Positions 2 to 12,105 of a stretch of 12,105 bases of DNA are shown piece after piece. Positions within the stretch are counted from its first letter, which is position 1, and each line of letters starts with the position of its first letter. The stretch is taken from NCBI GenBank assembly GCA_002329525.1, contig DCTI01000206.1, forward strand, positions 19,211 through 31,315, in the 5' to 3' direction. The notes under the pieces were generated by a model. It saw only the letters and a list, made by a program, of their open reading frames with translations. It searched no databases and was not told where the DNA came from. The translations under genes were made by a program, and so were the position numbers. Source of the stretch: Negativicutes bacterium UBA1444 (lineage in GTDB: Bacteria; Bacillota; Negativicutes; UBA1444).

Positions 2-373
2 ACGAAAGAATGCTGCGGGTCGGGAGAATGCGGCGCCTGTACGATTCTGCTGGACGGCGAAAGCCGGTTGTCGTGCCTTTTGTTGGCGGCGCAGCTCGAT
101 GGACGATCGGTGACAACCATCGAAGGAGTGGCCGGTGCAAACGGGATGCATGTGGTACAGCAGGCATTTGTCGATCACGGGGCTGTGCAGTGCGGCTTTT
201 GTACGCCGGGAATGATTTTGGCCACGCTGGATTTGTTGCGGCGGATTCCCGACCCGACCCGTGAGCAGGTGCGACAAGAACTGAGCGGCAATCTTTGTCG
301 CTGTACCGGGTACCAAAAAATTATCGACGCGGTCATGGCGGCCGCCAACACCCTGAACGAGGGGAGCGTTTAA
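2..373 (+). CDS. [2Fe-2S] subunit of a xanthine dehydrogenase-type molybdenum hydroxylase (5' partial)
   Basis: This is the small iron-sulfur subunit of a molybdenum hydroxylase (XdhC/CoxS type), which passes electrons from the molybdopterin site to FAD. The gene enters from outside the window; about 123 codons are visible and the family is about 150-160 residues long, so only the N-terminal beta-grasp part is missing. The plant-type ferredoxin cluster is visible as KECCGSGECGAC followed by a Cys at visible residue 25. The second, helical cluster is visible as QCGFCTPGM (Cys 64 and 67) and LCRCTGY (Cys 99 and 101). An oddity is that the residue before the second cluster Cys is Cys rather than the usual Gly (KEGCG). 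The stop codon lies two bases before the ATG of the FAD subunit, so the two are co-transcribed. The substrate (xanthine, nicotinate, CO or another) cannot be told from this subunit. Confidence 0.93.
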   Translation, partial: TKECCGSGECGACTILLDGESRLSCLLLAAQLDGRSVTTIEGVAGANGMHVVQQAFVDHGAVQCGFCTPGMILATLDLLRRIPDPTREQVRQELSGNLCRCTGYQKIIDAVMAAANTLNEGSV

Positions 374-375
374 AA

Positions 376-1221
376 ATGCGGATAATGCTCCCGACGTCTT
401 TGGCCGAACTATACGCAGCCCAACAGGAATTTCCGGCGGGAGCGATCATGGCCGGCGGCACCGATCTGTTGGTGAAACTGCGCCATTCCGGCCGGCGGCC
501 GCCGGCGCTGATTTGCCTGGAACGGATCGCGGAATTGCAGGAGTTGACGCTGACGGACGCGGAAATCACGATTGGCGCGGCCGTTACATTGCAACGGTTA
601 CTGGAATGTGATACGGTAAAAACGGAATTTGCCGCCTTGCATCAGGCGCTGACGGTATTGGCCTCACCGCCGGTCCGGCACAGCGCCACCTTGGCCGGCA
701 ACCTTTGCACGGCTTCGCCGGCGGGGGACACCTTGCCGCCCCTGTATGTGTTCAACGCGAGCGTCGATACGGTTTGCACCGGGAAGTATCGGCGCATTCC
801 GGTGGCGGAGTTTATCGCCGGGCCCGGCAGAACCGTTTTGCAGCCAGGGGAAGTCGTCACGTCGGTTCGTCTGGCGCGCGGGCCGAGCGGCAGGAATTCA
901 GGTTATTACAAGGTCGGAAAACGTCAGGCCATGGCAATTGCCGTAGCCAGCCTGGCGGCTTTGGTGACACCGGAGAAAAATGGCCGGCGGCAGATCCGGT
1001 TGGCTTGGGGCAGCGTCGGACCGACGGTCATGACTGCGCCGGCTATTGAAAGTTTTTTGGCGGACCGTTCTTTTACCGAAGAAAATTTACGACAGGCAGG
1101 GGCCCTGGTGTCGGAATTTGTGCAGCCCATCGACGACCTCCGGGCCAGTGCGGGGTATCGTCGTCAACTGGCGGCCAATCTGCTGCTGCGATTAGCGGCT
1201 GATTTCGACGCGGGGGAATAA
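376..1221 (+). CDS. FAD-binding subunit of a xanthine dehydrogenase-type molybdenum hydroxylase
   Basis: This 281-residue protein is the medium FAD subunit (XdhB/CoxM type) that accepts electrons from the [2Fe-2S] subunit and delivers them to the external acceptor. Both FAD-pyrophosphate loops of the family are visible: AGGTDLLVKL at residues 26-35 and AGNLCTASPAGDTLPP at 107-122. The C-terminal CoxM-type domain follows, and the length is normal. The ATG at 376 is chosen because it sits about ten bases after AGGGGA and only two bases after the small-subunit stop; an in-frame ATG three codons later is possible. No molybdopterin-binding large subunit follows, so it must be encoded upstream or elsewhere. 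The actual substrate is unknown. The stop codon runs directly into the ribosome binding site of the next gene, which suggests the transcript continues. Confidence 0.92.
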   Translation: MRIMLPTSLAELYAAQQEFPAGAIMAGGTDLLVKLRHSGRRPPALICLERIAELQELTLTDAEITIGAAVTLQRLLECDTVKTEFAALHQALTVLASPPVRHSATLAGNLCTASPAGDTLPPLYVFNASVDTVCTGKYRRIPVAEFIAGPGRTVLQPGEVVTSVRLARGPSGRNSGYYKVGKRQAMAIAVASLAALVTPEKNGRRQIRLAWGSVGPTVMTAPAIESFLADRSFTEENLRQAGALVSEFVQPIDDLRASAGYRRQLAANLLLRLAADFDAGE

Positions 1222-1234
1222 GGAGGAAGGTTGT

Positions 1235-2503
1235 ATGTCCGGACGACAGGCAGTGGAGTTGACGTTGCCCATTCAGGCCGAATTCTTGCCGGTTGCGACG
1301 GCTTGCGTGGAACAGACTGCGCAGGCTTATGGTATGGGGCGGGTGGAAACCATGCACCTGATGCTGGCCGTAGAGGAGGTGCTCTCTTTTCTGGCGGCCC
1401 GGTTGAGCGGCGGCTATCATCTGCTGAAGCTGCACTGTCGCAACGGCCGCTACTATATGGAGGTGGTCTGCCGCTTTCCCAGCAACGTGCTGCCGGTCGG
1501 CGCCTTTAACATCACCTCGACGGTATCCGCCGACGACGAGCAGTCGCTGGCGGAAATGGGGCTGTTGCTGGCGGCGCGAACCGCCGATCATCTGGCAGTG
1601 TCGGCAAAAAACGACGATATGGAGATCCGGTTTGTGAAAAATCGGCAGTATCCCGCTCTGCCGACGATTCCTGCATCGGTTGCCATGCAGGGAAGTTTGC
1701 GTATTGCCGAGCCGGCGCCGGAACTCATCAAACAGTTCGCGGCGAGGGTAGCGGGAAAATATGAGCGGCAGGCGCCGGCGTATTTCCAATCGCCGGGAAA
1801 AGTCGCCGACATGGTGGCCAGCGGTGACTACGGCGTTTCTTTGGTGACGGATGGCAAGAATAACATTATGGCCGGGATCTTCTGGCGCAACGGAAAACAG
1901 ATGGCGGAAGCGGCCGGTCCCTATGTTTTCTGCGCTGAAGCCGATGCGGCGGTTCAGGCGGTGGAAGGGTGCTTGCAGAAGCTGGCCCGGACCTCGGTGC
2001 TGTGTCTCGTGGTTCAGCAGCCGACTCCGGATATGCCGGCGGGATATTTCGAACCGCTGGCGCAGGACGGGAGTGTGCTTTACCGCCAGCTGGCGGAAGA
2101 TAATGGAATCCTCGTTTACGCGCATCCGATCTTTGCGGATTATTTGACCGACGGTTATCGAAACCTGTTTTTGCCGCGCGACATTCGCCAGGTCGAAAAT
2201 CAGGGGGAAAAACAATCGCTGCATTCGGCCTTTGCGGTTCGGATGGATCGGCCGGCCGGCCGGGTCGTCATGGAGTCGATCTGGGCGGGCGAAGATGCGC
2301 TGGCGGTTGTGGGGCAGCATATTCAGGCCCTGCGGCAAGAAGGCTTTCGGGAAATTTATTTCCATCTGGATACGGGCGTGCCGGAACAGGCGTTGTTGAG
2401 CCCGGCGCTGTCGGTCAACGGGTTTAAGCCGGCCTGGATCGTTCCCTGGGGCGGCGAGGGAGATATTTTGGTTTTGGCGCACCGGGAGGAGGAGTCGTGC
2501 TGA
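1235..2503 (+). CDS. RsbW-like (degenerate HATPase) domain fused to a GNAT-like domain
   Basis: This 422-residue soluble protein has two parts. Residues 1 to about 137 resemble the RsbW/SpoIIAB anti-sigma kinase fold: LMLAVEEVLSFLA (43-55) matches the N-box helix, and SLAEMGLLLAARTADHL (104-120) matches the helix after the G2 box. The ATP-binding residues look lost. The N-box Asn is Phe52, the DNG of the G1 box is absent (FPSNVLPVGAFN in its place), and the glycines of GGLG are replaced by SLAEMG. Residues about 155-422 look like a GNAT/acyl-CoA N-acyltransferase fold, but I see no clear R/QxxGxG/A acetyl-CoA loop, so this part is less certain. The start at 1235 follows AAGGAGGA at 1220-1227. 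The stop overlaps the aminotransferase start (TGATG). A role as a non-catalytic partner-binding protein with an acyltransferase arm is inference. Compare the intact RsbW-like kinase at 4011. Confidence 0.72.
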   Translation: MSGRQAVELTLPIQAEFLPVATACVEQTAQAYGMGRVETMHLMLAVEEVLSFLAARLSGGYHLLKLHCRNGRYYMEVVCRFPSNVLPVGAFNITSTVSADDEQSLAEMGLLLAARTADHLAVSAKNDDMEIRFVKNRQYPALPTIPASVAMQGSLRIAEPAPELIKQFAARVAGKYERQAPAYFQSPGKVADMVASGDYGVSLVTDGKNNIMAGIFWRNGKQMAEAAGPYVFCAEADAAVQAVEGCLQKLARTSVLCLVVQQPTPDMPAGYFEPLAQDGSVLYRQLAEDNGILVYAHPIFADYLTDGYRNLFLPRDIRQVENQGEKQSLHSAFAVRMDRPAGRVVMESIWAGEDALAVVGQHIQALRQEGFREIYFHLDTGVPEQALLSPALSVNGFKPAWIVPWGGEGDILVLAHREEESC

Positions 2504-3618
2504 TGCACCCGTTTCCCCCTTTGGATATGCTGGTTCCTCGCCACATCCAGAAAATCGAACCTTATATCCCCAGCCGGCCGGACGATGTATTGCGGCAGAT
2601 GTTCGGCTGTCCAACCATTTATCGGCTCAATAACAACGAAAATGCGCTTGGGCCATCGCCGGAAGCGATCCGGGCCATCCAGGCGGTCCGGCCGGAACAG
2701 GCGGCGATTTATCCGAGCGGCGATGCTTGGCATTTGCGGCAACGATTGGCGGAAAGGTTCCATCTTCCGCCGGACTCCTTCATTGTCGGCAATGGCGCCA
2801 ACGAAGTGATCGCCTTTGTGATCAAGGCTTTTTGCCAGGAGGGCGACAATATCATCACGACGGACCGGACTTTTGCCGTGTACGAGTGGGTGGCGGAGTT
2901 TTCCGGCTATGAGGCCCGGCTGGTTCCCCTGACGGCGGATTATAGTTTTGACGATGAAGGCATGCTGGCGGCGGTGGATGCGCGAACCAAGATTATCTTT
3001 CTCTGCAATCCCAATAATCCGACGGGAACATATTGGAACGAGGAACGGTTGCGGCGGTTTCTGGACCGGGTGGATGGCCGGCAAATCGTAGTGGTCGATG
3101 AGGCTTACGGTGAATTTGTGGCAAAATCGGATTTTCCCAATGGAATGGAGCTTTTACGGGAATATCCGAATTTACTGGTGTTTCGCACTTTCTCCAAAAT
3201 GTTTGCCTTGGCGGCTTTGCGCATCGGGTTTCTGGCCGGTCAGGAAAAAATCGTCGACGTGGTCCGGCGGACCTGCGTGGTTTATTCGGTCAATTCCTTC
3301 GCGCAACAGGCGGCAATCGGCGCTTTGAAAGATGCGGACCTGCAAATTGAACGGACGCGGCGGATGGTGCAGGAGGCCCGGCAAGTTCTCTGTGAAGAGC
3401 TGCGGCGCCTGAATCTGCCATATATTGCTGGCGAAGGGAACTATGTGGTAATTCGTCTGCCCATGAGCGATACGCTGGCTTACCGGAAACTGATGGCTCA
3501 GGGGCTGATGGTGCGCTCCATGACCGGGTTCCGCTTTCCCAACCATATCCGGGTGACGCTCGCGACGGTGCCGGTTATGGAGAAGCTGGCGGCAGGTTTG
3601 GCCCGGATTATTGCCTGA
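2503..3618 (+). CDS. HisC-family PLP aminotransferase (histidinol-phosphate aminotransferase-like)
   Basis: This 371-residue fold-type I PLP enzyme belongs to the histidinol-phosphate aminotransferase family (class I/II). Visible landmarks are the substrate-side LNNNENALGPSP (42-53), GNGANEVI (96-103) that forms part of the phosphate cup, CNPNNPTGT (168-176) with the PLP-ring Asn, DEAY (199-202) whose Asp contacts the pyridine nitrogen, and the Schiff-base lysine in FRTFSK (Lys232). The Arg of LRIGF follows. The start is set at the ATG at 2503, one base overlapping the previous stop, with GGAGGAG about eight bases upstream; a GTG at 2497 lies too close to that site. HisC is only the closest family. 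There is no histidine biosynthesis gene nearby and the gene sits among signalling genes, so the substrate may be another amino acid, a phosphorylated amine or a keto acid. Confidence 0.88.
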   Translation: MHPFPPLDMLVPRHIQKIEPYIPSRPDDVLRQMFGCPTIYRLNNNENALGPSPEAIRAIQAVRPEQAAIYPSGDAWHLRQRLAERFHLPPDSFIVGNGANEVIAFVIKAFCQEGDNIITTDRTFAVYEWVAEFSGYEARLVPLTADYSFDDEGMLAAVDARTKIIFLCNPNNPTGTYWNEERLRRFLDRVDGRQIVVVDEAYGEFVAKSDFPNGMELLREYPNLLVFRTFSKMFALAALRIGFLAGQEKIVDVVRRTCVVYSVNSFAQQAAIGALKDADLQIERTRRMVQEARQVLCEELRRLNLPYIAGEGNYVVIRLPMSDTLAYRKLMAQGLMVRSMTGFRFPNHIRVTLATVPVMEKLAAGLARIIA

Positions 3619-3672: not shown

Positions 3673-4011
3673 ATGAATGTCAGCACACGGGATGAAAATG
3701 GATTCTGGGTGATTCGGTTGGAAGGCAGGCTGGACATCGGCAACGCGGCCGAGTTCGAAAAAGCCTGTCTGGCTTGGATTGACGAGGGAAGGCCCAACCT
3801 GGTACTCGATTTTGGCGGCCTCGAGTATATCAGCAGCGCCGGCCTGCGCAGCATTCTCGCCGCCACCAAGCGGGCCAAAGCGGCAAACGGCAGCCTATCC
3901 CTTTGTTCCTTGTCCGGCTTGGTAGCGGAAGTGATTAGCATTTCCGGTTTTGACAGCATTCTGACGGTGTTCGAGGATGTTCCCCAGGCCACGGCAGGGG
4001 GGCAGGTCTGA
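3673..4011 (+). CDS. STAS-domain anti-sigma factor antagonist (RsbV/SpoIIAA-like)
   Basis: This 112-residue single STAS domain is the phosphorylatable antagonist of a partner-switching system. When unphosphorylated it would bind the RsbW-like kinase and release that kinase's target. GFWVIRLEGRLD at residues 10-21 matches the first strands. LDFGGLEYISSAGLRSIL at 45-62 matches the active helix; by alignment with B. subtilis SpoIIAA Ser58 and RsbV Ser56, the predicted phosphosite is Ser55. The ATG at 3673 gives the usual length, with GGAGAG about eight bases upstream. An in-frame GTG at 3664 with GAGG seven bases upstream is a fair alternative. The stop overlaps the start of the kinase gene (TGATG), so the two are translationally coupled, as expected for a stoichiometric pair. 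A palindrome lies just upstream. Confidence 0.92.
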   Translation: MNVSTRDENGFWVIRLEGRLDIGNAAEFEKACLAWIDEGRPNLVLDFGGLEYISSAGLRSILAATKRAKAANGSLSLCSLSGLVAEVISISGFDSILTVFEDVPQATAGGQV

Positions 4012-4427
4012 TGGAAGCGGTGGAAAGAACTTTTTTGGCGAATTTGGAAACCTTGCCAGCGATTGTCGGTTTTGTATCCGAACATGCGGCGGCGATGGGC
4101 GTCCACCCGAAACGGGTGATGCATCTGGAACTGGCGGTGGAAGAAGCCGCCGTCAATATTTGCAGCTATGCCTACGAGATTCCGCCGGGAGAGGTAACCG
4201 TCCGGATTACGCCGGAACCCGGGGTGGTGCGGATCGAACTGGTGGACAACGGCGTGCCTTTCGATCCTTTGTCCATGGATGCGCCGGATATCAAGTCGGA
4301 ACTGGAAAACCGCGAAGTTGGCGGGCTGGGAATTTTCTTGATTCGCCGGATGCTGGATGAAGTGCACTATAGCCGACGCGGCGATCAGAATATTTTGTCG
4401 CTGGCCGTTCGCCATGATGAGAAATAG
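4011..4427 (+). CDS. RsbW/SpoIIAB-like anti-sigma serine kinase
   Basis: This 138-residue GHKL-fold protein is the switch kinase. In the known family it binds ATP, phosphorylates the STAS antagonist and sequesters a sigma factor or other target. All ATP-site elements are present: the N box LAVEEAAVNICSYAY with Glu45 and Asn49, the G1 box DNGVPFDP (79-86) and the G2 box VGGLGIFL (103-110). Length is typical of SpoIIAB/RsbW. Its start overlaps the STAS gene stop by one base, and its last codons overlap the start of the solute-binding protein gene. The adjacent STAS gene and downstream PP2C gene supply the other two components. No sigma factor gene is seen here, so what it restrains is unknown. 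It is the intact counterpart of the degenerate RsbW-like domain encoded at 1235-2503. Confidence 0.92.
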   Translation: MEAVERTFLANLETLPAIVGFVSEHAAAMGVHPKRVMHLELAVEEAAVNICSYAYEIPPGEVTVRITPEPGVVRIELVDNGVPFDPLSMDAPDIKSELENREVGGLGIFLIRRMLDEVHYSRRGDQNILSLAVRHDEK

Positions 4428-5412
4428 GCTGGTCGTTTTCCGTACGATTTTGTTATTAGGGCTGCTGCTGTTATGGTCGCTGCCGGCGGCTGCTTCGACG
4501 CTGAAACCGGTTCGGTTTATGTTGCAGTGGAGTCACCAGGCCCAGTTCGCCGGTTACTATGTCGCCCTGGAAAAGGGCTATTACCGGGATCAGGGACTGG
4601 ATGTTACCATCGTTCCCGGTGGGCCGGGCTTGGATGCGTCCGCTTACCTCAACCGCGGTGATGTGGATTTCGCATCGTTGTGGCTGAGCACAGCGTTGAT
4701 GTTGACGGAACAGGCGCAGCCGCTGGTCAATGTGGCCCAGATTGTCAATGATTCGAATTTGGTGTTGGTGACCCGTCGTGAAGATACTATTGAAAACATT
4801 GCCGATTTGTCGAATAAAAAAGTAAGCATTTGGGAGGGAGATTTCCGGGCTCCCTACGTCGCCTGGCTGCAGTCGAAAAACGTGACGCCCCGGATTTTTC
4901 CGCAATATTACTCCGTGAACCTGTTTTTGCAAAGGGCAGTGGATGCTTGTTCAGCGATGGACTATAACGAAGTGCACATGATTTACCAGACCGGAATTGA
5001 TCTGGATGAGTTAAAACTGTTTTCGTTACGCGACTACGGATTCGGCTTTCCGGAAGACGGCGTATACGCCACTGCGGAAACCGTAAGGCAAGATCCGCAG
5101 CGTGCAATCGCCTTCCGTGCCGCTACCTTGGCGGGGTGGAAGTATGCGGCGGAGCATCCGGAAGAAACGCTGGATATCGTCATGCAGTATATTGAAAAAG
5201 ACAATGTGCCGACTAACCGGCCCCATATGAAGTGGATGCTGGCGAATATTTTGGACAGTGTGATGCCTGGCCCTCAGAACGACTGGATCTTCGGCGTATT
5301 ATCCCGCCAGGATTATGAACGGACCGTTCAAGTGCTTCGCACGCAGGGAATGCTGAAAAAGATGCCGGATTATGAAGAGTTCATCGGTGGAGGCCTGATT
5401 GATGTTCCGTAA
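4414..5412 (+). CDS. Exported NMT1/THI5-type solute-binding protein, probable sensory partner
   Basis: This 332-residue protein has a Sec signal peptide: basic MMRNR, a hydrophobic stretch at about 7-22 and cleavage near AAA27-Ser28. There is no lipobox cysteine. The mature part begins with QWSHQAQFAGYYVALEKGYY (38-57) and a GLDVTI strand, typical of the NMT1/THI5 family, whose members bind thiamine precursors (ThiY), sulfonates or related small molecules. The start is ATG 4414 (or the adjacent ATG 4417), overlapping the kinase gene by 14 or 11 bases; no strong ribosome binding site is visible, which suggests coupling. Its 3' end overlaps the sensor phosphatase gene by 11 bases. No permease or ATPase gene accompanies it. 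I infer that it presents a ligand to the dCache domain of the next protein instead of feeding a transporter. The ligand is unknown. Confidence 0.83.
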   Translation: MMRNRLVVFRTILLLGLLLLWSLPAAASTLKPVRFMLQWSHQAQFAGYYVALEKGYYRDQGLDVTIVPGGPGLDASAYLNRGDVDFASLWLSTALMLTEQAQPLVNVAQIVNDSNLVLVTRREDTIENIADLSNKKVSIWEGDFRAPYVAWLQSKNVTPRIFPQYYSVNLFLQRAVDACSAMDYNEVHMIYQTGIDLDELKLFSLRDYGFGFPEDGVYATAETVRQDPQRAIAFRAATLAGWKYAAEHPEETLDIVMQYIEKDNVPTNRPHMKWMLANILDSVMPGPQNDWIFGVLSRQDYERTVQVLRTQGMLKKMPDYEEFIGGGLIDVP

Positions 5413-7363
5413 CTGGAGTATTGCCTGGCGATTGGGCGGTTCGATGCTGCTGGCCTCACTGGTTATTTTGGGTGCGGTGATTGGTTACGGCTACGGGATT
5501 GCCCGGCAGATTCTTGAACAGGAGTTGGAAGCGAAGGCGTGGCAGCTTTCCCGGGCCGTCACCGCCCGTATCGAAAGCGTTGAAGTTGCCGTGAGAAAGA
5601 CGGTCGACGGTATGGGCGGCCGCATGGCCATCGACGCACCGAAACGCCCGGAAACGTTGTATCTGCTGCTGGAACGCTTGGTGCGCGTCAACGAGGAAAT
5701 CTATGGCGCATCGATCGCGTTGGAACCCAAGGCCTTCGGATACAGCGAGACCTACGCCTCGCCTTATGTTTACCGTTCCTGGAACCAACTGGTCCGGGAC
5801 GACCGCGGAAAACGCGCCGACCGTTATTTCGTGCAGGATTGGTACACCACTCCCCGTCTGACGCGACAACCGCTTTGGAGTGAGCCTTACCGCGCGGCCT
5901 CGCGCGGCAATGCGCTGATGGTGTCCTATTCAACGCCAATTTTCGATGACCAGGACCGTTTTTTGGGCGTGGCCACCTGTGACATTTCGTTAGAATGGCT
6001 GGCCGATTTATTGCAGTCGTTACCATTGGGAAAAGGCGGCTACGCTTTTTTGCTGTCCCGGAACGGCACCTACATTACCCATCCGGACCGCCAGCTGATT
6101 TTAAAGGAAAATATTTTTAGCCAGTCGGAAGAACAACTGAATCCGAAACTGCGTGAACTGGGACGCCAGATGGTGCAGGGCCGGGAAGGGTTTATTCCCT
6201 ATGGCGACGTGTTTGCCGGCCAACACGGCTGGCTCTTGTATCGCTCCATACCCTCAACCGGCTGGTCCATCGGCATTTTTTTCCCGGAAGCGGAGTTGAT
6301 GGCCAAAGTATCGGAATTGAGCCGCCGGGAAGGTTTTGTGGGGTTCTTTGGTTTTTTGCTGTTGATTCCCGTTATGATGTATATCTCCCGGTCCATTACC
6401 GAACCGCTGCGAAAATTGGCCGATAGCACCAAGAGCCTTGCTGCTGGCGACCTGGATGCGCCCTTGCCGATTATCAAGGGCCAGGATGAAGTGGCGAATC
6501 TGGCCGGGTCTTTTGTTTCCATGCGAGGGGAACTGAAAAAGCACATTGATATGTTGCAGGCGGCGGCAACCGCCAAGGAACGGATTGCCAGCGAACTGCG
6601 CATTGCCCAGAGCATCCAGATGGAACTGGTGCCCAAGACGTTTCCGCCGTTTCCCGACCGTCAGGATTTTGAGCTGTATGCGATGATGAATCCAGCGCGG
6701 GAAGTGGGCGGCGATTTTTATGATTTCCTGATGCCGGATCCGGAACATCTCTGGATAGTGATTGGCGATGTTTCCGGCAAGGGAATCCCGGCAGCCCTGT
6801 TTATGGCGGTTACCCGAACTTTCCTCCGGGCGTTTGTGCAGGAGGAAGCGTCGCCGGGTCGGGTGCTGGCCCGGGTCAATGATGAGTTGGCTTGTAACAA
6901 TGAATCGAATATGTTTGTAACCCTATTCTGCGGGGTGGTTCATCTGCCGGACGGCGTGTTCCGTTGGGCCAATGGAGGTCATAATCCGCCGTTTTTCCTG
7001 CCGGCCGGCGGAAAAACGGAATTCCTGCCCAGAACCAAGGGCGCTCTGGTCGGCGCCATCGAAGAACTGGCATTTGCGGAGGCCGAATTGAAGCTGCAAC
7101 CTGGCGATACTTTGTTCTTATATACTGATGGGGTCACCGAGGCCATGAATCAAACCCAGCAATTATTTGGCAACGACCGGACCCGTGACTGTCTGCAGGA
7201 ACTTCGGCAGCAGGATTGCGTCGGCATCGTCAACGGAATGGCGGCCCAATTGGCGGACTTTGCCGAGGGGGCCGAACAGTCGGATGACATTACCATGCTG
7301 GTGCTGCGCTTTTTCGGTCCAGACCTGACAGACGGCCATCCCGGAAGGACGGATGATGCATGA
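5402..7363 (+). CDS. Membrane sensor phosphatase: dCache-HAMP-PP2C (RsbU/SpoIIE-like)
   Basis: This 653-residue inner-membrane protein should dephosphorylate the STAS antagonist when its external domain is triggered. Order of parts: TM1 about 12-32; a large extracytoplasmic dCache-type sensor about 33-305 with DWYTTPRL at 146-153 and the GVATCDISL strand; TM2 about 310-331; HAMP about 331-383 starting SITEPLRKL; a short coiled coil with ELRIAQSIQMELVP; then the PP2C-type phosphatase. Metal-binding motifs are intact: GGDFYD (436-441), GDVSGKG (455-461), TDG (575-577) and SDDIT (627-631). The ATG at 5402 follows GGTGGAGG by eight bases; a TTG one codon upstream is less likely. The gene overlaps the solute-binding protein gene by 11 bases, and its stop overlaps the start of a decayed fabH-like gene. 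It completes the phosphatase-antagonist-kinase set. Confidence 0.94.
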   Translation: MFRNWSIAWRLGGSMLLASLVILGAVIGYGYGIARQILEQELEAKAWQLSRAVTARIESVEVAVRKTVDGMGGRMAIDAPKRPETLYLLLERLVRVNEEIYGASIALEPKAFGYSETYASPYVYRSWNQLVRDDRGKRADRYFVQDWYTTPRLTRQPLWSEPYRAASRGNALMVSYSTPIFDDQDRFLGVATCDISLEWLADLLQSLPLGKGGYAFLLSRNGTYITHPDRQLILKENIFSQSEEQLNPKLRELGRQMVQGREGFIPYGDVFAGQHGWLLYRSIPSTGWSIGIFFPEAELMAKVSELSRREGFVGFFGFLLLIPVMMYISRSITEPLRKLADSTKSLAAGDLDAPLPIIKGQDEVANLAGSFVSMRGELKKHIDMLQAAATAKERIASELRIAQSIQMELVPKTFPPFPDRQDFELYAMMNPAREVGGDFYDFLMPDPEHLWIVIGDVSGKGIPAALFMAVTRTFLRAFVQEEASPGRVLARVNDELACNNESNMFVTLFCGVVHLPDGVFRWANGGHNPPFFLPAGGKTEFLPRTKGALVGAIEELAFAEAELKLQPGDTLFLYTDGVTEAMNQTQQLFGNDRTRDCLQELRQQDCVGIVNGMAAQLADFAEGAEQSDDITMLVLRFFGPDLTDGHPGRTDDA

Positions 7364-7605: not shown

Positions 7606-7902
7606 ATGCTGTCTTGCCGAAAGCTTGCGTCGGCAATTTTTGCTTTCATCGTCGCTGGGTTCATTTGGCTGCCGACGGCAATGGCGGAGACGCTGGCGGA
7701 CATCGATGCCGAGATTCAGGGGAATCGATCAATCCAGACCCACCGGAGCGGGCTGGATGCCTATAATATCTATGATGGGGTGACCAACGGCCGTCTGGAC
7801 CGGAAATGGGCGATTTTACAGGCGGCAGGCGTCAGCTCCTATTTTTTGACGAGTAATTATGCCAATTTTTATTTCATTTACCGGCACCGCAGGAGTTACT
7901 GA
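7606..7902 (+). CDS. N-terminal part (signal peptide) of a frameshifted autotransporter-type outer-membrane protein
   Basis: The start has an excellent ribosome binding site (GGGGAGG at 7592-7598, seven bases before ATG). The product begins with a clear Sec signal peptide: a basic SCRK start, hydrophobic residues at about 8-22 and cleavage at AMA27-Glu28. It continues for about 65 residues of mature sequence (ETLADIDAEIQGNRS onward). The last residues, YRHRRSY before the stop, look like out-of-frame sequence. Moving to the neighbouring frame at about 7866-7870, a run of five T, gives SNYANFISFTGTAGVTD and continues into the 453-residue barrel-containing frame. I therefore read this and the next entry as one gene of about 538 codons with one extra base. 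A sequencing error is as likely as a true mutation. Confidence 0.7.
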   Translation: MLSCRKLASAIFAFIVAGFIWLPTAMAETLADIDAEIQGNRSIQTHRSGLDAYNIYDGVTNGRLDRKWAILQAAGVSSYFLTSNYANFYFIYRHRRSY

Positions 7903-9220
7903 CACCAAACTGGATCTGGTGACCACTACGGCTACGCAGCGATTATTTCGCCGTTCGGCCGGTGCCGGTTCAGAAATTGCCCGGGGCTATTTCGGTGCCT
8001 GGTGGGGCGACCGGTACCGGGGAATTCAGGCGTCCCGCGATGAGCAGGCGATTCTGGCGGCCTGGGGCAGCGATTTGCGGAGGATTTACGTGATTGATGT
8101 GCCGGCAGGCTATACGCTGGTTGGCGGGATCGCCTCGCCGATGGAGAAAAATGGCGAATATCGGGCCGGTGGGGCCTATCAATATTATTACAGCGGCAAT
8201 TTGGCCACGATGCGCGGCTGGTTGGTTTACGCCCTGTATGCGCCGGACTACACCAAAAGCTACGCGGGAGCGGTGACCAGTGCGCAGGCGGCAGGGCGGG
8301 GAATCGCCGCAGATTTGTCCCGCCATCTTGATCAGACCAGGTATTCCGGCTATTTGCCGGAATCGCCGGAGTCCCGGCATGAAACCGGAGAGTTCTGGAT
8401 CCGCGGTTTCGGCGGGACGATGAATACTTTGGAAGGTGAAGGCAGCTCTGTACGGTCCCTGACCTCGGGCGTCAGCCTGGGGTGGCAGCGACCGACCCAC
8501 GATCATACTCCGGGAGCTCGTCAAAAATCATATTTCGGAGTGTTGCTGTCTCAGGGCCAAAACAGCCGGCAGTACGGGGTCAGCGACTATGGCGGCGGTC
8601 AGGTGGAAACCACAACGACAACGACCGTCGCCGGAATTTACGGTTTGCATGTAAATCGTCCCGAAAGTGCGAATGCCTGGTATGGTCAATGGTCATTGCT
8701 TTACGGGGGGATCAACTATCGGAATGTTGTGCCGGGCGAAATCGCCGGCGCTGGCCTGATACAACGCTACGACGGAACGATAGCTATTCTCACGCTGGAA
8801 AATGGAGTATCGTTCCGGCAGAAAAATGGCTGGCTTTTGGAACCGCAGCTTCAACTTTCCTATACCCATATCCAACAGAAGGATTTTCGGGACAACCTGG
8901 GAGCGCTGATAGCGTTGCGACGGGGAAACTCTCTTTGGGGGCGCCTCGGCTTCGAGGCCAGACGGACCATGGGGAGGACGCCTGAACGGAAATCCTGCTA
9001 TTGGGCGCGAATAAGCTATAGTCGTGAGTTTTTGGCCCGGAACGAAGTCGACGTTGCGGGTGACTTGGGCAGGAGCGTTGCGAACCGTGACACATTTTCA
9101 GCTGCTCTGGGCACGATTCTGCAACTCGGAAGAAATGTCGGACTGCAGGCCGAAGCGGTACAGTATTTCGGCGGCGACAAGGGGGCTCAGGCGCAGCTGT
9201 CCGTAAACTACTCCTGGTAG
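7859..9220 (+). CDS. C-terminal passenger and beta-barrel part of an autotransporter-type outer-membrane protein (frameshifted)
   Basis: This 453-codon frame lacks its own signal peptide, and the ATG at 7859 has no usable ribosome binding site, so it is best read as the continuation of the gene starting at 7606. Residues about 1-135 form a small passenger-like region. Residues about 140-161 (AQAAGRGIAADLSRHL) look like the linker helix that plugs autotransporter barrels. From about 178 (GEFWIRGFGG) to the end there are alternating amphipathic strands typical of the autotransporter barrel domain, including YFGVLLSQG and LEPQLQLSYTHI. The protein ends in SVNYSW, the terminal aromatic signal recognised by the BAM machinery. 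This is the strongest sign of a diderm host. The passenger's function is not recognisable. No terminator is seen directly after the stop. Confidence 0.82.
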   Translation: MPIFISFTGTAGVTDTKLDLVTTTATQRLFRRSAGAGSEIARGYFGAWWGDRYRGIQASRDEQAILAAWGSDLRRIYVIDVPAGYTLVGGIASPMEKNGEYRAGGAYQYYYSGNLATMRGWLVYALYAPDYTKSYAGAVTSAQAAGRGIAADLSRHLDQTRYSGYLPESPESRHETGEFWIRGFGGTMNTLEGEGSSVRSLTSGVSLGWQRPTHDHTPGARQKSYFGVLLSQGQNSRQYGVSDYGGGQVETTTTTTVAGIYGLHVNRPESANAWYGQWSLLYGGINYRNVVPGEIAGAGLIQRYDGTIAILTLENGVSFRQKNGWLLEPQLQLSYTHIQQKDFRDNLGALIALRRGNSLWGRLGFEARRTMGRTPERKSCYWARISYSREFLARNEVDVAGDLGRSVANRDTFSAALGTILQLGRNVGLQAEAVQYFGGDKGAQAQLSVNYSW

Positions 9221-9402: not shown

Positions 9403-10599
9403 ATGAAAGTGCGCAACAAGTGGCTGGTTTTCCTAGTGGCCATGGGGGTGGCCATAGCCCTGCTGGCAGGCTGCGGCAAGCCGGAAAAAGCGCCGGCCAA
9501 GGCAGGCGCCGACGCAACGGCGGACGGCATCAAAATCGGGGTTTTGTATTCGACGACCGGCCCCTTCTCCATCTCCGAAAAGCCGATGCTTAACGCCGCG
9601 AAGCTGGCGATTGACGAGATCAACGCCGCCGGCGGGATCAAAGGGAAAAAGCTGATTCCGGTTTATGAAGACTATGCTTCGGATCCGGCGAAAGCCACTG
9701 AAAAAATCAAAAAACTGATTTTGCAGGACAAAGTCGTGGCGACGGTCGGCACCAATTCTTCCGCAACGCGGCTGGCGGTCATCCCGGATGTGGAGCGCAA
9801 TAAATCCTTGTTGCTTTACAACACTTATTATGAAGGGGAAAAACCCTCCCCCTACGTGATCTATACCAATTCGATACCAAGCCAGCAAAGCGCGGACTTC
9901 ATCCCCTGGATCGTAAAAAACCTGGGCAAGAAAGTATTCTTTGTCGGTTCGGATTATGTATTCGGCGTGACCAGTGTGAAAAAGGCCAAAGCCATGCTAG
10001 AAAAGGCGGGGGGGCAGATAGTCGGCGAAGAATTTGTACCGCTGGGCCATACCGAATTTTCCTCGTTGATCAACAAAATCAAACAGGCCAAACCGGACGT
10101 GGTTTTTTCAGCAGTAGCCGGCGACAGTGTGGTGCCGTTCTACAAGCAGTACCAACAGTACGGAATTTTGGCCAAAGATATTCCCATCTGCTCCATTGCG
10201 ACGCATGAAGCGACGATCAAGGGGATCGGTGCGGCGGCAGCAGCCGGCCATTACAGCTCGTTTGATTATTTCCAGGTACTGGACACGCCTGAGAGCAAAA
10301 AGTTTGTGACCGCCTATAACAGTAAATTCCAGGACAACACGACGGTGACCAACCTGGCCGAGGGCGCGTATCATGGCGTTTATCTCCTGGCAAAAGCCCT
10401 CGAAAAGGCGACGGCCTACGACGGTCCCACTCTGGTGAAAGCGTTCAAAGGGCTGGAAATCAATTCGCCGCAGGGGAAAATCAAGGTGGATGAAAACAAC
10501 AATCATACCTGGCTGCAATCCTTCATCGGCAAGGTGAAACCCGATGGCACATTTGAGATCGTTTACGGTTCGAAGCAGTTGGTAAAGCCGGAACTGTAA
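9403..10599 (+). CDS. urtA: Urea-type ABC transporter substrate-binding lipoprotein (UrtA-like)
   Basis: This 398-residue protein is a Liv/HAAT-family periplasmic binding protein, most like UrtA, the urea receptor of the UrtABCDE importer. It has a lipoprotein signal with lipobox LLAGC (Cys24), then a charged, Ala-rich linker. UrtA-like landmarks are SISEKPMLNAAKLAIDEIN, EDYASDP, LLLYNTYYEGE, VFFVGSDYVFG, GEEFVPLGHTEFSSLINKI, KPDVVFSAVAGDS and FDYFQVLDTPESK; the YEGE, GSDYVF and PLGHTEFS stretches resemble UrtA/AmiC more than the leucine-binding LivJ/K proteins. AGGAGG lies seven bases before the ATG. It is preceded by a promoter and a terminator-like leader and followed, after a large hairpin, by urtB and urtC. 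Urea is the expected ligand, but short amides (AmiC-like) are possible. Confidence 0.85.
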   Translation: MKVRNKWLVFLVAMGVAIALLAGCGKPEKAPAKAGADATADGIKIGVLYSTTGPFSISEKPMLNAAKLAIDEINAAGGIKGKKLIPVYEDYASDPAKATEKIKKLILQDKVVATVGTNSSATRLAVIPDVERNKSLLLYNTYYEGEKPSPYVIYTNSIPSQQSADFIPWIVKNLGKKVFFVGSDYVFGVTSVKKAKAMLEKAGGQIVGEEFVPLGHTEFSSLINKIKQAKPDVVFSAVAGDSVVPFYKQYQQYGILAKDIPICSIATHEATIKGIGAAAAAGHYSSFDYFQVLDTPESKKFVTAYNSKFQDNTTVTNLAEGAYHGVYLLAKALEKATAYDGPTLVKAFKGLEINSPQGKIKVDENNNHTWLQSFIGKVKPDGTFEIVYGSKQLVKPEL

Positions 10600-10647
10600 T
10601 CTGCCTTTGCGCAACCTTTAGGCGCAACTTATAAGTGGAGGCACAAT

Positions 10648-10695
10648 GAAGTGCGTTTGTCGAACGGCGATTTCCGCTTTCGGCAAACGCACTTT
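10648..10695 (+). promoter_or_regulatory. Long stem-loop between urtA and urtB
   Basis: AAGTGCGTTTGTCGAA (10649-10664) is complementary to TTCGGCAAACGCACTT (10679-10694) over 16 pairs with one G-U. A 14-base loop contains a further CGG/CCG pairing. Only four T follow, so it is a weak terminator at best. It is better placed as an RNA-stabilising or partial-stop element that keeps binding-protein mRNA above permease mRNA. An AUG with GGAGG five bases upstream (ATG 10646) sits at the foot of the 5' arm. Confidence 0.62.
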
Positions 10696-10733
10696 TCACA
10701 GGGGAGCCATCAGCGGGAAAGGAGCGGGGAAGA

Positions 10734-11594
10734 ATGGAGCTGTTCATTTCACAAGGAATCAACGGTCTGAGTGTATCAGCCATGCTGTTTATCACTGCTT
10801 TGGGGCTGGTCATCATTTTCGGCCTGATGGACGTCGTTAATATGGCGCATGGCGAATTCATCATGATTGGCGCCTATGTGACGTACTTTGTGACTACCGT
10901 TTTCCACGGGCCCTTTTTTCTGGCCATGTTGCTGGCCTTTCTGACGGCCGCCTTATTCGGGGCCATCGTCGAAGTGACGCTGATCAAGCGGCTGTACGGA
11001 AAGGTGGCGGAAACCATGCTGGCGACATTTGCGCTGTCGACGATTCTGCAGCAAACGGTGCGGATGCTGTTCGGCCCGGAGGATAAATTTGTCGGACCGC
11101 CGCTGGCCGGGCATTTTTCGCTGCAGGGAATTGTAATTCCCCATTACAATGTGTTTCTGATCATTGTCGCTCTGGCGATTCTGGCGACGACGCTGGTGTT
11201 GTTTTTTAAAACATCCTTTGGCATGCAACTTCGGGCAGTCACGCAGAATCGCAGTATGTCGCAATGCCTCGGCGTCAACACGGCGCGCATCGATACTCTG
11301 ACCTTCGCCTGTGGGTCCGGCCTGGCCGGTTTGGCCGGCGCCTTGATCGCTCCCGTGAAAAGCGTCATGCCGTTGATGGGGTCGTATTATCTGGTGGACG
11401 GTCTGCTAACCGTCGTCCTTGGTGGCGTCACTTCGATCATCGGGACGGCGGCCAGTTCGACGGTGATCAGCGAGTCGGTCACGCTCATGGCCGGCTATAT
11501 GAGCGAAATTACGGCCAAAGTATTGGTGTTCCTGATTATCATCGTACTGATCCGCTTTAAGCCGGAAGGCTTGTTTGCAAGCGAGAAGAGGTGA
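10734..11594 (+). CDS. urtB: Urea-type ABC transporter permease UrtB
   Basis: This 286-residue membrane protein belongs to the LivH/UrtB permease family and has about eight hydrophobic spans. Family landmarks are GLVIIFGLMDVVNMAHGEF near the N-terminus, a cytoplasmic loop MQLRAVTQNRSMSQCLGV, GSGLAGLAGALIAP, and VLGGVTSIIGT followed by a basic C-terminus ending RFKPEGLFASEKR. VTQNR with the following LTF and GSGLAGLAG matches UrtB better than LivH. The ATG at 10734 has AGGAG nine bases upstream. The gene lies 134 bases after urtA, separated by a stable hairpin, and five bases before the urtC start. It should form the inner-membrane channel together with UrtC. Confidence 0.87.
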   Translation: MELFISQGINGLSVSAMLFITALGLVIIFGLMDVVNMAHGEFIMIGAYVTYFVTTVFHGPFFLAMLLAFLTAALFGAIVEVTLIKRLYGKVAETMLATFALSTILQQTVRMLFGPEDKFVGPPLAGHFSLQGIVIPHYNVFLIIVALAILATTLVLFFKTSFGMQLRAVTQNRSMSQCLGVNTARIDTLTFACGSGLAGLAGALIAPVKSVMPLMGSYYLVDGLLTVVLGGVTSIIGTAASSTVISESVTLMAGYMSEITAKVLVFLIIIVLIRFKPEGLFASEKR

Positions 11595-11599
11595 GCGGC

Positions 11600-12105
11600 A
11601 TGTTGGAAAAACTGAAAGAGCTGGGCTGGGAAAAATGTATTGATATCCTGTTGTTTCTCTTTTTGGCGTTGTTTCCGGTGATTGGCTCTTTGTTCCGGGT
11701 GGAAATGATGAGTAAGTGCATCGTGTATATCATTTTCGCGCTTTCCCTGGATATTCTATGGGGCAGCGCGGGCTTGATGAACCTGGGCCAGGCGATATTC
11801 TTCGGATTGGGAAGTTATGTGCTGGCACTGTCGTATGCCACCCGTGACGGGATTCCGGCCTTCATGAGCGGCTTCGGGGTGACGGAAGTCCCCTGGTTCA
11901 TGCAGGTTTTGCACAGTACGCCGGTGGCGATCGCGCTGGGCATGCTCGTTCCCGGTTTGGTGGCCGGCCTGTTGGGATACTTTATCTTCCGCAGTAAAGT
12001 GAAAGGTGTATTCTTTAACATTATTACCCTGTCGTTGGCTTCACTCGTGGAACTGTTCTTCACCAATCAACAAAAATATACCGGCGGGGCCAATGGCATC
12101 AGTGG
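11600..12105 (+). CDS. urtC: Urea-type ABC transporter permease UrtC (3' partial)
   Basis: This is the second permease of the LivM/UrtC family; 168 codons are visible of an expected 330-360 or more. After an amphipathic N-terminus there are hydrophobic spans and the family motif IIFALSLDILWGSAGLMNLG, then IFFGLGSYVLAL, FRSKVKGVFFNIITLSL and a GGANGIS stretch at the window edge, matching the GGNNGL region of UrtC/LivM. The ATG at 11600 is placed five bases after the urtB stop with GAGG eight bases upstream. The frame is open to the end of the window. The two ATPase genes (urtD, urtE) are expected just downstream but cannot be seen. Confidence 0.86.
   Translation, partial: MLEKLKELGWEKCIDILLFLFLALFPVIGSLFRVEMMSKCIVYIIFALSLDILWGSAGLMNLGQAIFFGLGSYVLALSYATRDGIPAFMSGFGVTEVPWFMQVLHSTPVAIALGMLVPGLVAGLLGYFIFRSKVKGVFFNIITLSLASLVELFFTNQQKYTGGANGIS

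What the first reader, a model, noticed from the sequence alone, without database searches (positions are those of the whole stretch)
3673..7363. Compact partner-switching cassette with a built-in solute-binding protein
Four genes overlap end to end: STAS antagonist (predicted phosphosite Ser55), RsbW-like kinase with intact N/G1/G2 boxes, exported NMT1/THI5-type binding protein, and a dCache-HAMP-PP2C phosphatase. In known RsbU/V/W systems input comes through cytoplasmic partners or the phosphatase's own sensor. Here the overlaps imply that a secreted binding protein is made with the phosphatase and may deliver ligand to its dCache domain. The switch output is unknown because no sigma factor gene is nearby.
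Basis: partly seen in the sequence, partly recalled or inferred. Interest (0 to 1): 0.7.

Follow-up and report, generated by a model that had tools for sequence, protein, structure and literature searches.

The report
Binding protein paired with sensor phosphatase
A secreted small-molecule-binding protein is encoded beside a membrane sensor phosphatase in distantly related bacteria, almost never beside a transporter, which suggests it works as part of a signal receptor rather than an uptake pump, although direct contact has not been shown.

Summary
The four genes are present, overlapping, with key motifs intact: STAS (3673-4011), RsbW-like kinase (4011-4427), exported NMT1/THI5-type binding protein (4417-5412), dCache-HAMP-PP2C phosphatase (5402-7363). 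Of 182 non-identical NMT1 relatives collected by sequence alone, 169 have a dCache gene directly downstream on the same strand; they form one clade, with transporter-linked and fused NMT1 proteins outside it. An ABC permease occurs in 1 of the 169 loci, beside a second NMT1 gene. The pair spans many phyla and persists while the output changes (mostly PP2C, also class III cyclase or histidine kinase; at least 6 changes). I read it as a portable two-protein sensory unit, here feeding a partner switch. Physical contact is not shown: coevolution was indistinguishable from phylogeny and the co-fold failed. Against a delivery-only role, dCache pocket residues stay conserved and close relatives without NMT1 exist. 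Nearest solved structures of the binding protein are thiamin and pyrimidine-precursor binders. The output target is unknown. Binding-protein-activated receptors are known, but the lists I read do not include PP2C phosphatases or class III cyclases. New variant of a known kind.

The parts
3673..4011 (+). STAS-domain anti-anti-sigma-like protein (RsbV/SpoIIAA-like), candidate phosphosite Ser55
   Evidence: TIGR00377 over cut-off; Ser55 in 68 of 68
4011..4427 (+). RsbW-like serine kinase (HATPase_c_2) with N, G1 and G2 boxes present
4417..5412 (+). exported NMT1/THI5-type solute-binding protein (start at ATG 4414 or 4417); nearest folds ThiY and a thiamin-bound binding protein
   Evidence: (pLDDT 94.2)
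5402..7363 (+). membrane receptor phosphatase: TM1, periplasmic dCache (about 5501-6310), TM2, HAMP, SpoIIE/PP2C
   Evidence: TM segments read from the sequence
1235..2503 (+). 422-aa protein with a weak RsbA/RsbW-like N-terminal match; homologs recur near the cassette in other genomes
   Evidence: no Pfam; NF041045 2e-4; matches in 14 loci, 12 after dropping two duplicate loci; window included, one match a 59-aa fragment
2503..3618 (+). HisC-like PLP aminotransferase; homologs recur near the cassette
   Evidence: matches in 12 loci, 11 after dropping one duplicate; window included
2..1221 (+). 2Fe-2S (2-373) and FAD (295-1221) subunits of a molybdenum hydroxylase, large subunit just upstream of the window (L095:2771-5137); recurs upstream of the cassette in genomes of the window's class and in deltaproteobacterial records
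   Evidence: FAD subunit in 9 loci, window included

Best explanation
The NMT1 protein is a dedicated extracytoplasmic co-receptor of the dCache-HAMP receptor. Proposed chain: the exported binding protein captures a small molecule; the loaded (or empty) form docks on the dCache domain; HAMP passes the change to the PP2C domain; PP2C dephosphorylates the STAS protein at Ser55; free STAS captures the RsbW-like kinase and so releases or blocks its unknown target. SHOWN here by sequence: gene order, domains, presence of catalytic and regulatory motifs, an NMT1 clade whose testable members all travel with dCache receptors, and persistence of the pair when the output is PP2C, cyclase or histidine kinase. 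INFERRED: physical docking, direction of the effect, the ligand (a pyrimidine- or thiamin-like N-heterocycle is a guess from the nearest structures and the neighbouring molybdenum hydroxylase), and the kinase's target. The dCache may also bind its own ligand, which would make this a two-input receptor.
For: 169 of 182 NMT1 hits (227 before dropping identical domains) have a dCache domain directly downstream on the same strand (two of the 169 are halves of one gene split by a stop, L202). Of the other 13, 5 are cut by a contig or locus end and 8 lack dCache (L103, L104 with ABC genes; L105-L107 long fused proteins; a second NMT1 in L221; L225, L226). Rooted on TauA/SsuA, the 167 dCache-linked rows in the tree plus 2 contig-cut genes form one clade (support 83; a 160-row part at 99). 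0 of 51 pairs with at least 3 kb on both sides have an ABC permease; the profile does find permeases in L103, L104 and L285. NMT1 stop to dCache profile start: median 92 bp; the stop-to-stop open frame of the receptor begins before the NMT1 stop in 162 of 169. Among 80 loci with long flanks, NMT1 and receptor recur in 79 and 76, STAS in 43, RsbW in 28, and no other gene family in more than 11. The output changes at least 6 times among paired receptors on the dCache tree. Phylum samples at E<=1e-60: 66 of 395, 20 of 288, 11 of 100, 5 of 145 genomes, one copy each. Receptor activation by binding proteins is an established principle (PMC11113362 and PMC9602780, passages).
Against: No contact evidence: top inter-protein coupling scores in 166 pairs (Neff 132; maximum 2.34) beat random re-pairing (maximum 1.07 in 20) but not re-pairing among near relatives (mean maximum 2.15, highest 2.38 in 10); the read-through co-fold had pLDDT 61.6 and pTM 0.41; no natural NMT1-dCache fusion among 17 hits of the fusion search. 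The dCache keeps pocket residues W 165, Y/F 165, Y 158, M 156 and D 158 of 166, so it can plausibly bind a small molecule itself. In 244 genomes of the phylum of G111, 35 of 49 dCache hits pair with NMT1, 13 do not and 1 is contig-cut (my comparison; 12 of the 13 inspected), and four of the 13 lie inside paired clades, so some lineages do without NMT1.
Confidence: 0.62

Rival explanations
1. The dCache domain senses its own ligand directly. The co-expressed NMT1 protein buffers, scavenges or concentrates the same or a related compound without docking on the receptor.
For: Five mapped pocket positions are conserved in NMT1-paired (166 rows) and NMT1-less (13 rows, one of them contig-cut) dCaches alike; the nearest solved dCaches include 3lib, which a preprint reports as an amine-binding dCache_1AM domain (PMC10104139, passages and section 6); dCache-HAMP-PP2C receptors after RsbW but without NMT1 exist (L271, L272, L273, L280).
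Against: Does not explain why one NMT1 clade stays with this receptor type through at least 6 output changes, nor the rarity of transport genes. The arginine of amino-acid sensors is absent and the amine motif is only partly met.
Confidence: 0.22
2. The NMT1 protein serves an ABC transporter encoded elsewhere; the receptor gene is beside it only because it regulates that uptake system.
For: ABC components can be unlinked from their binding protein (general knowledge; a PMC9602780 passage notes SBP genes away from transporter genes). L285 holds a second, permease-linked NMT1 beside the pair. I did not search the own genome for unlinked permeases.
Against: Permease in 1 of 169 loci and 0 of 51 with long flanks; transporter-linked NMT1 proteins branch outside the clade.
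Confidence: 0.1
3. The neighbourhood is an ordinary operon kept by linkage, and the NMT1 protein has an enzymatic or structural role unrelated to the receptor.
For: The fold is closest to ThiY and next to the THI5 enzymes, so an enzyme role is not excluded by fold.
Against: Adjacency is kept over many phyla while other neighbours change.
Confidence: 0.06

Closest known systems
LuxP-LuxQ, TorT-TorS, XylFII-LytS, NspS-MbaA and other binding-protein-activated receptors
   Same: A binding protein controls a membrane receptor's cytoplasmic output, often from an adjacent gene (principle in PMC11113362 and PMC9602780, passages; details of the individual pairs recalled).
   Different: Binding protein here is NMT1/THI5 type; output is mostly a PP2C phosphatase of a partner switch, or a class III cyclase. 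The passages read list chemoreceptors, histidine kinases, Ser/Thr or protein kinases, and diguanylate cyclases/phosphodiesterases.
RsbU/RsbV/RsbW partner-switching systems
   Same: PP2C phosphatase, STAS protein with conserved Ser, RsbW-type kinase.
   Different: Added exported binding protein and extracellular sensor; no linked sigma factor found; the kinase matches RsbW models far below their cut-offs.
SiaABCD of Pseudomonas aeruginosa
   Same: Membrane HAMP-PP2C phosphatase with kinase and STAS-like partner; the receptor's best NCBIfam match is SiaA (1e-27, residues 320-638).
   Different: Match is far below the SiaA cut-off (97 against 700 bits) and covers only HAMP-PP2C; no diguanylate cyclase gene beside it in the window, and no binding protein in SiaABCD as recalled (the two PMC7647112 passages mention none).
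ThiY and thiamin-binding ABC proteins (3ix1, 4nmy)
   Different: 18-20% identity, no transporter genes beside it, separate clade from the transporter-linked NMT1 proteins in the tree.
NMT1-GGDEF-EAL fusion proteins (L105, L106)
   Same: An NMT1 domain in a signalling protein.
   Different: One polypeptide, no dCache domain found; 26-32% identity over the matched part.

Membership tests
RsbU/V/W-type partner-switching system | PP2C (SpoIIE) phosphatase with metal-site motifs | tested here: met
   SpoIIE 2.8e-54; motifs
RsbU/V/W-type partner-switching system | STAS antagonist with conserved serine | tested here: met
   (Ser in 68 of 68 aligned)
RsbU/V/W-type partner-switching system | RsbW-type HATPase_c_2 kinase with N, G1, G2 boxes | tested here: met
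   NCBIfam equivalog cut-offs for RsbW itself not reached
RsbU/V/W-type partner-switching system | Linked or known sigma-factor target | tested here: inconclusive
   No SigBFG match over cut-off in the own genome, which is 73% complete; no sigma factor among the window ORFs scanned or the recurrent neighbours scanned (not every recurrent family was scanned)
SBP-activated receptor (LuxPQ-like principle) | Binding-protein gene conserved beside the receptor gene | tested here: met
SBP-activated receptor (LuxPQ-like principle) | Binding protein lacks its own linked permease | tested here: met
   (0 of 51 with long flanks)
SBP-activated receptor (LuxPQ-like principle) | Binding protein contacts the receptor sensor domain | tested here: inconclusive
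SBP-activated receptor (LuxPQ-like principle) | Ligand-dependent control of receptor output | not testable with these tools
   needs biochemistry
NMT1/THI5 Pfam family PF09084 | Profile match over the gathering score | tested here: met
   (133 against 20.5 bits)
ABC importer binding protein (ThiY/SsuA type) | Encoded with permease and ATPase | tested here: not met
   SsuA_fam model far below cut-off (42.7 against 163.5 bits)
dCache_1AA amino-acid sensor | Arginine at the PctA R126 position | tested here: not met
   W 44, Q 34, L 21, E 10 of 166 paired domains lead; placing the position rests on my alignment to the motif described
dCache_1AM amine sensor | Aromatic pair, Met, Ser and Asp of the amine motif plus upstream R103/D133 insertion | tested here: inconclusive
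   aromatic pair, Met and Asp conserved, Ser mostly Thr (133 T, 29 S of 166); in the alignment to 3lib the family has a shorter loop at the insertion; the W155 position was not mapped
dCache_1PU purine sensor | Published purine motif | not tested
   PMC11245519 passages seen; motif not mapped onto this family
SiaA | NCBIfam NF038263 over cut-off | tested here: not met
   97 against 700 bits

The most novel reading that the evidence does not exclude
NMT1 protein plus dCache-HAMP is a portable two-protein receptor module, present across many phyla, in which a dedicated binding protein and the receptor's own pocket together set the activity of exchangeable outputs (PP2C partner switch, class III cyclase, histidine kinase). 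It would be the first binding-protein-controlled PP2C phosphatase that I know of. In the window's lineage it sits with a molybdenum hydroxylase, an aminotransferase and KAS III genes, so the signal may be a product or substrate of that pathway.
Probability: 0.5. Interest if true: 0.75.

Novelty: new variant of a known kind. Interest (0 to 1): 0.6.

Why it matters
Binding proteins without linked transporters exist and their role is often unclear. Here one subfamily is tied to one receptor type across many phyla, which turns a vague annotation (transport protein) into a testable sensory function. It would extend binding-protein control to PP2C phosphatases and class III cyclases, and it offers natural output swaps for studying how one dCache/binding-protein pair drives different enzymes.

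Tried and rejected
Coevolution: regularised Gaussian coupling analysis on 166 NMT1/dCache pairs; the top scores fall on hub columns and are matched by re-pairing near relatives, so no contact can be claimed.

Fusion search: the adjacent genes of L099 read through their stop as one query; 17 hits at E<=1e-30 from 7995 scored candidates, none with NMT1 and dCache together by the listed Pfam domains. Hits did include a permease-NMT1 protein (P0135) and NMT1-GGDEF proteins (P0136-P0138).

Co-fold: five in-frame read-throughs gave pLDDT 61.6 and pTM 0.41, not informative. In such a chain the binding protein hangs on the cytoplasmic end of TM1, so even a good model would have been a poor test. A larger mixed alignment (A3) appeared to place dCache rows on the NMT1 half (12-18% identity to the first row for nearly all of them) and was dropped.

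Genome-contig scan with the single sequence found nothing; the alignment scan gave at least 516 relatives, best 80 kept. redrew largely the same genomes as and added almost nothing. Class of Lamprocystis: only the centre genome itself (1 of 94).

Sigma-factor search in the own genome: 5 weak matches, none over the cut-off.

Literature: (listings: titles and abstract starts). None of them shows a paper on a binding-protein-controlled PP2C or on this gene pair. The library is open-access papers only, so this is not proof of absence from print.
Full report
WHAT IS THERE. The window carries the four genes as described, on the + strand and overlapping: STAS 3673-4011, RsbW-like kinase 4011-4427, NMT1/THI5-type binding protein 4414/4417-5412 and dCache-HAMP-PP2C 5402-7363. 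Catalytic and regulatory motifs are present. The binding protein starts with a hydrophobic signal-like stretch. An autotransporter barrel at 7859-9220 fits a host with an outer membrane. The window lies on a 58,997-base contig of a 2.87 Mb, 73% complete genome; no name is given, and relatives on the same class level include contigs whose proteins are named Anaeroselena agilis and Sporomusaceae, so I take it for a Negativicutes member (inference).

IS THE PAIR REAL? I collected relatives of the binding protein by its own sequence, blind to neighbours: class relatives, the best 80 of at least 516 matches in species genomes, and phylum samples. 227 NMT1 hits remained after leaving out first short copies of the same places; dropping identical domains left 182, of which 169 have a dCache domain directly downstream on the same strand. 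Two of these 169 are halves of one gene interrupted by a stop (L202), so 168 genes. Of the other 13, two genes run into a contig end (L087, L199), three are long proteins cut by the locus end (L126-L128), two sit with ABC permeases and ATPase (L103, L104), three are long fused proteins (L105 and L106 checked as NMT1-GGDEF-EAL), one is a second NMT1 gene next to a permease (L221), and two stand alone near isochorismatase genes (L225, L226). On an NMT1 tree rooted with TauA and SsuA, the 167 dCache-linked rows plus the two contig-cut genes form one clade (support 83; a 160-row part at 99), with transporter-linked, fused and lone proteins outside (two short fragments were not in the tree). TauA and SsuA are long branches, so the root is approximate.

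NO TRANSPORTER. One of the 169 loci contains an ABC permease, and there it adjoins a second, separate NMT1 gene. Many loci carry only about 1.5 kb of flank; among the 51 with at least 3 kb on both sides none has a permease. The profile, built from TauC and SsuC, does find permeases where they exist (L103, L104, L285). I did not search for unlinked permeases elsewhere in the genomes.

WIDE AND PORTABLE. Matches at E<=1e-60 occur in 66 of 395 genomes of the phylum of a Desulfatitalea genome, 20 of 288 of the phylum of a Kiritimatiellae genome, 11 of 100 of the phylum of a Synergistota genome and 5 of 145 of the phylum of an Omnitrophota genome, one copy each and centres included; 1 of 94 in the class of Lamprocystis, the centre itself. 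Record titles add Acidobacteria, Actinobacteria, Nitrospirae, Armatimonadetes and others. Seven class relatives of the window at E<=1e-100 all keep the STAS-RsbW-NMT1-receptor order; 33 loci in all, the window included, have STAS and RsbW just upstream. Not every PP2C pair has a switch beside it: of 47 PP2C pairs with long flanks, 20 have STAS and RsbW within 3 kb, 10 have STAS with RsbW fused to the receptor, 3 have STAS only and 14 have neither. The output varies: PP2C in 129 and PP2C fused to an RsbW domain in 12 of the 169; class III cyclase in 19 and a histidine kinase in 1 of the 161 tree rows that could be assigned (cyclase confirmed by Pfam in eight of them and the kinase in L074). The dCache tree needs at least 6 changes of output among paired receptors. 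The unit that is conserved is therefore binding protein plus dCache-HAMP; partner switching is one of its outputs.

THE OTHER DIRECTION. The dCache profile gave 49 hits in 244 genomes of the phylum of G111. Comparing their places with the NMT1 places are paired, 13 are not and 1 is contig-cut; I fetched 12 of the 13 and the cut one and found no NMT1 beside them. L271 (after STAS and RsbW) and L272, L273, L280 (after RsbW) lie inside paired clades, so the receptor can apparently lose its partner. Five pocket positions that I mapped from published dCache motifs remain: W 165, Y/F 165, Y 158, M 156, D 158 of 166 paired domains, and at least 12 of 13 in the NMT1-less set. The arginine typical of amino-acid sensors is absent. 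The nearest solved dCache structures include 3lib, which a preprint identifies as an amine sensor (PMC10104139; passages and section 6 read). The receptor may thus bind something itself.

CONTACT. I could not show it. Couplings between the two proteins in 166 pairs exceed random pairing but not pairing with near relatives; a single-chain read-through fold failed; no natural fusion turned up.

COMPARISON. Binding-protein-activated receptors are an established principle; the two papers consulted list chemoreceptors, histidine kinases, protein or Ser/Thr kinases and diguanylate cyclases/phosphodiesterases (PMC11113362, passages; PMC9602780, passages). PP2C phosphatases and class III cyclases are not in those lists, and the listings of literature searches showed no paper on this pair. 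Partner switching itself, and sensor PP2C phosphatases such as SiaA, are known; the match to SiaA covers only HAMP-PP2C and is far below its cut-off. I file this as a new variant: known principle, known parts, a combination and distribution that I did not find described.

CONFIDENCE. That the binding protein belongs functionally with the receptor rather than with a transporter: about 0.85. That it docks on the dCache domain and controls output: about 0.62. Whether the dCache also senses directly: open.

Noticed in passing
window 7360-about 7515: Remnant of a KAS III (FabH-like) gene directly after the phosphatase, broken by an early stop and a frame change; the same-genus genome has two KAS III genes there (L096:6024-7100 and 5012-6004, minus strand).
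   Followed up: partly
L095:3-5137 and window 2-1221: Upstream genes: an AMP-binding (acyl-CoA ligase-like) gene and a three-subunit molybdenum hydroxylase; FAD-subunit homologs lie near the cassette in 9 loci, window included.
   Followed up: partly
window 1235-2503: 422-aa protein without Pfam match, weakly RsbA/RsbW-like at its N-terminus, with homologs near the cassette in 12 distinct loci, window included; it may be a second kinase-like partner.
   Followed up: partly
window 7606-9220: Autotransporter beta-barrel gene that appears in two overlapping frames (7606-7902 and 7859-9220), possibly a frame break or assembly error.
   Followed up: no
window 9403-12105: Urea or branched-chain amino-acid type ABC genes: 9403-10599 UrtA-like (below cut-off), 10734-11594 UrtB over cut-off; the third ORF from 11591 was not scanned.
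   Followed up: no
L105:6203-8773, L106:5831-8332, L107:6274-8790 (minus strands): NMT1 domain in long proteins of relatives in the window's class; L105 and L106 are NMT1-GGDEF-EAL fusions, L107 not domain-scanned.
   Followed up: partly
L063:5508-7466, also L067, L087, L092, L093: A second HAMP receptor gene (a class III cyclase in L063) sits just upstream of the NMT1 gene; in L063, L067, L092 and L093 the paired dCache receptor also has a cyclase output.
   Followed up: no
L285 (G369:C13): Adjacent ABC ATPase, permease and NMT1 gene followed by the receptor-linked NMT1 and dCache-HAMP-PP2C: both kinds of NMT1 side by side.
   Followed up: partly
L202 (G161:C16): NMT1 gene of the pair split by an in-frame TGA, with a short dCache fragment after it; likely a pseudogene or sequence error.
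   Followed up: no
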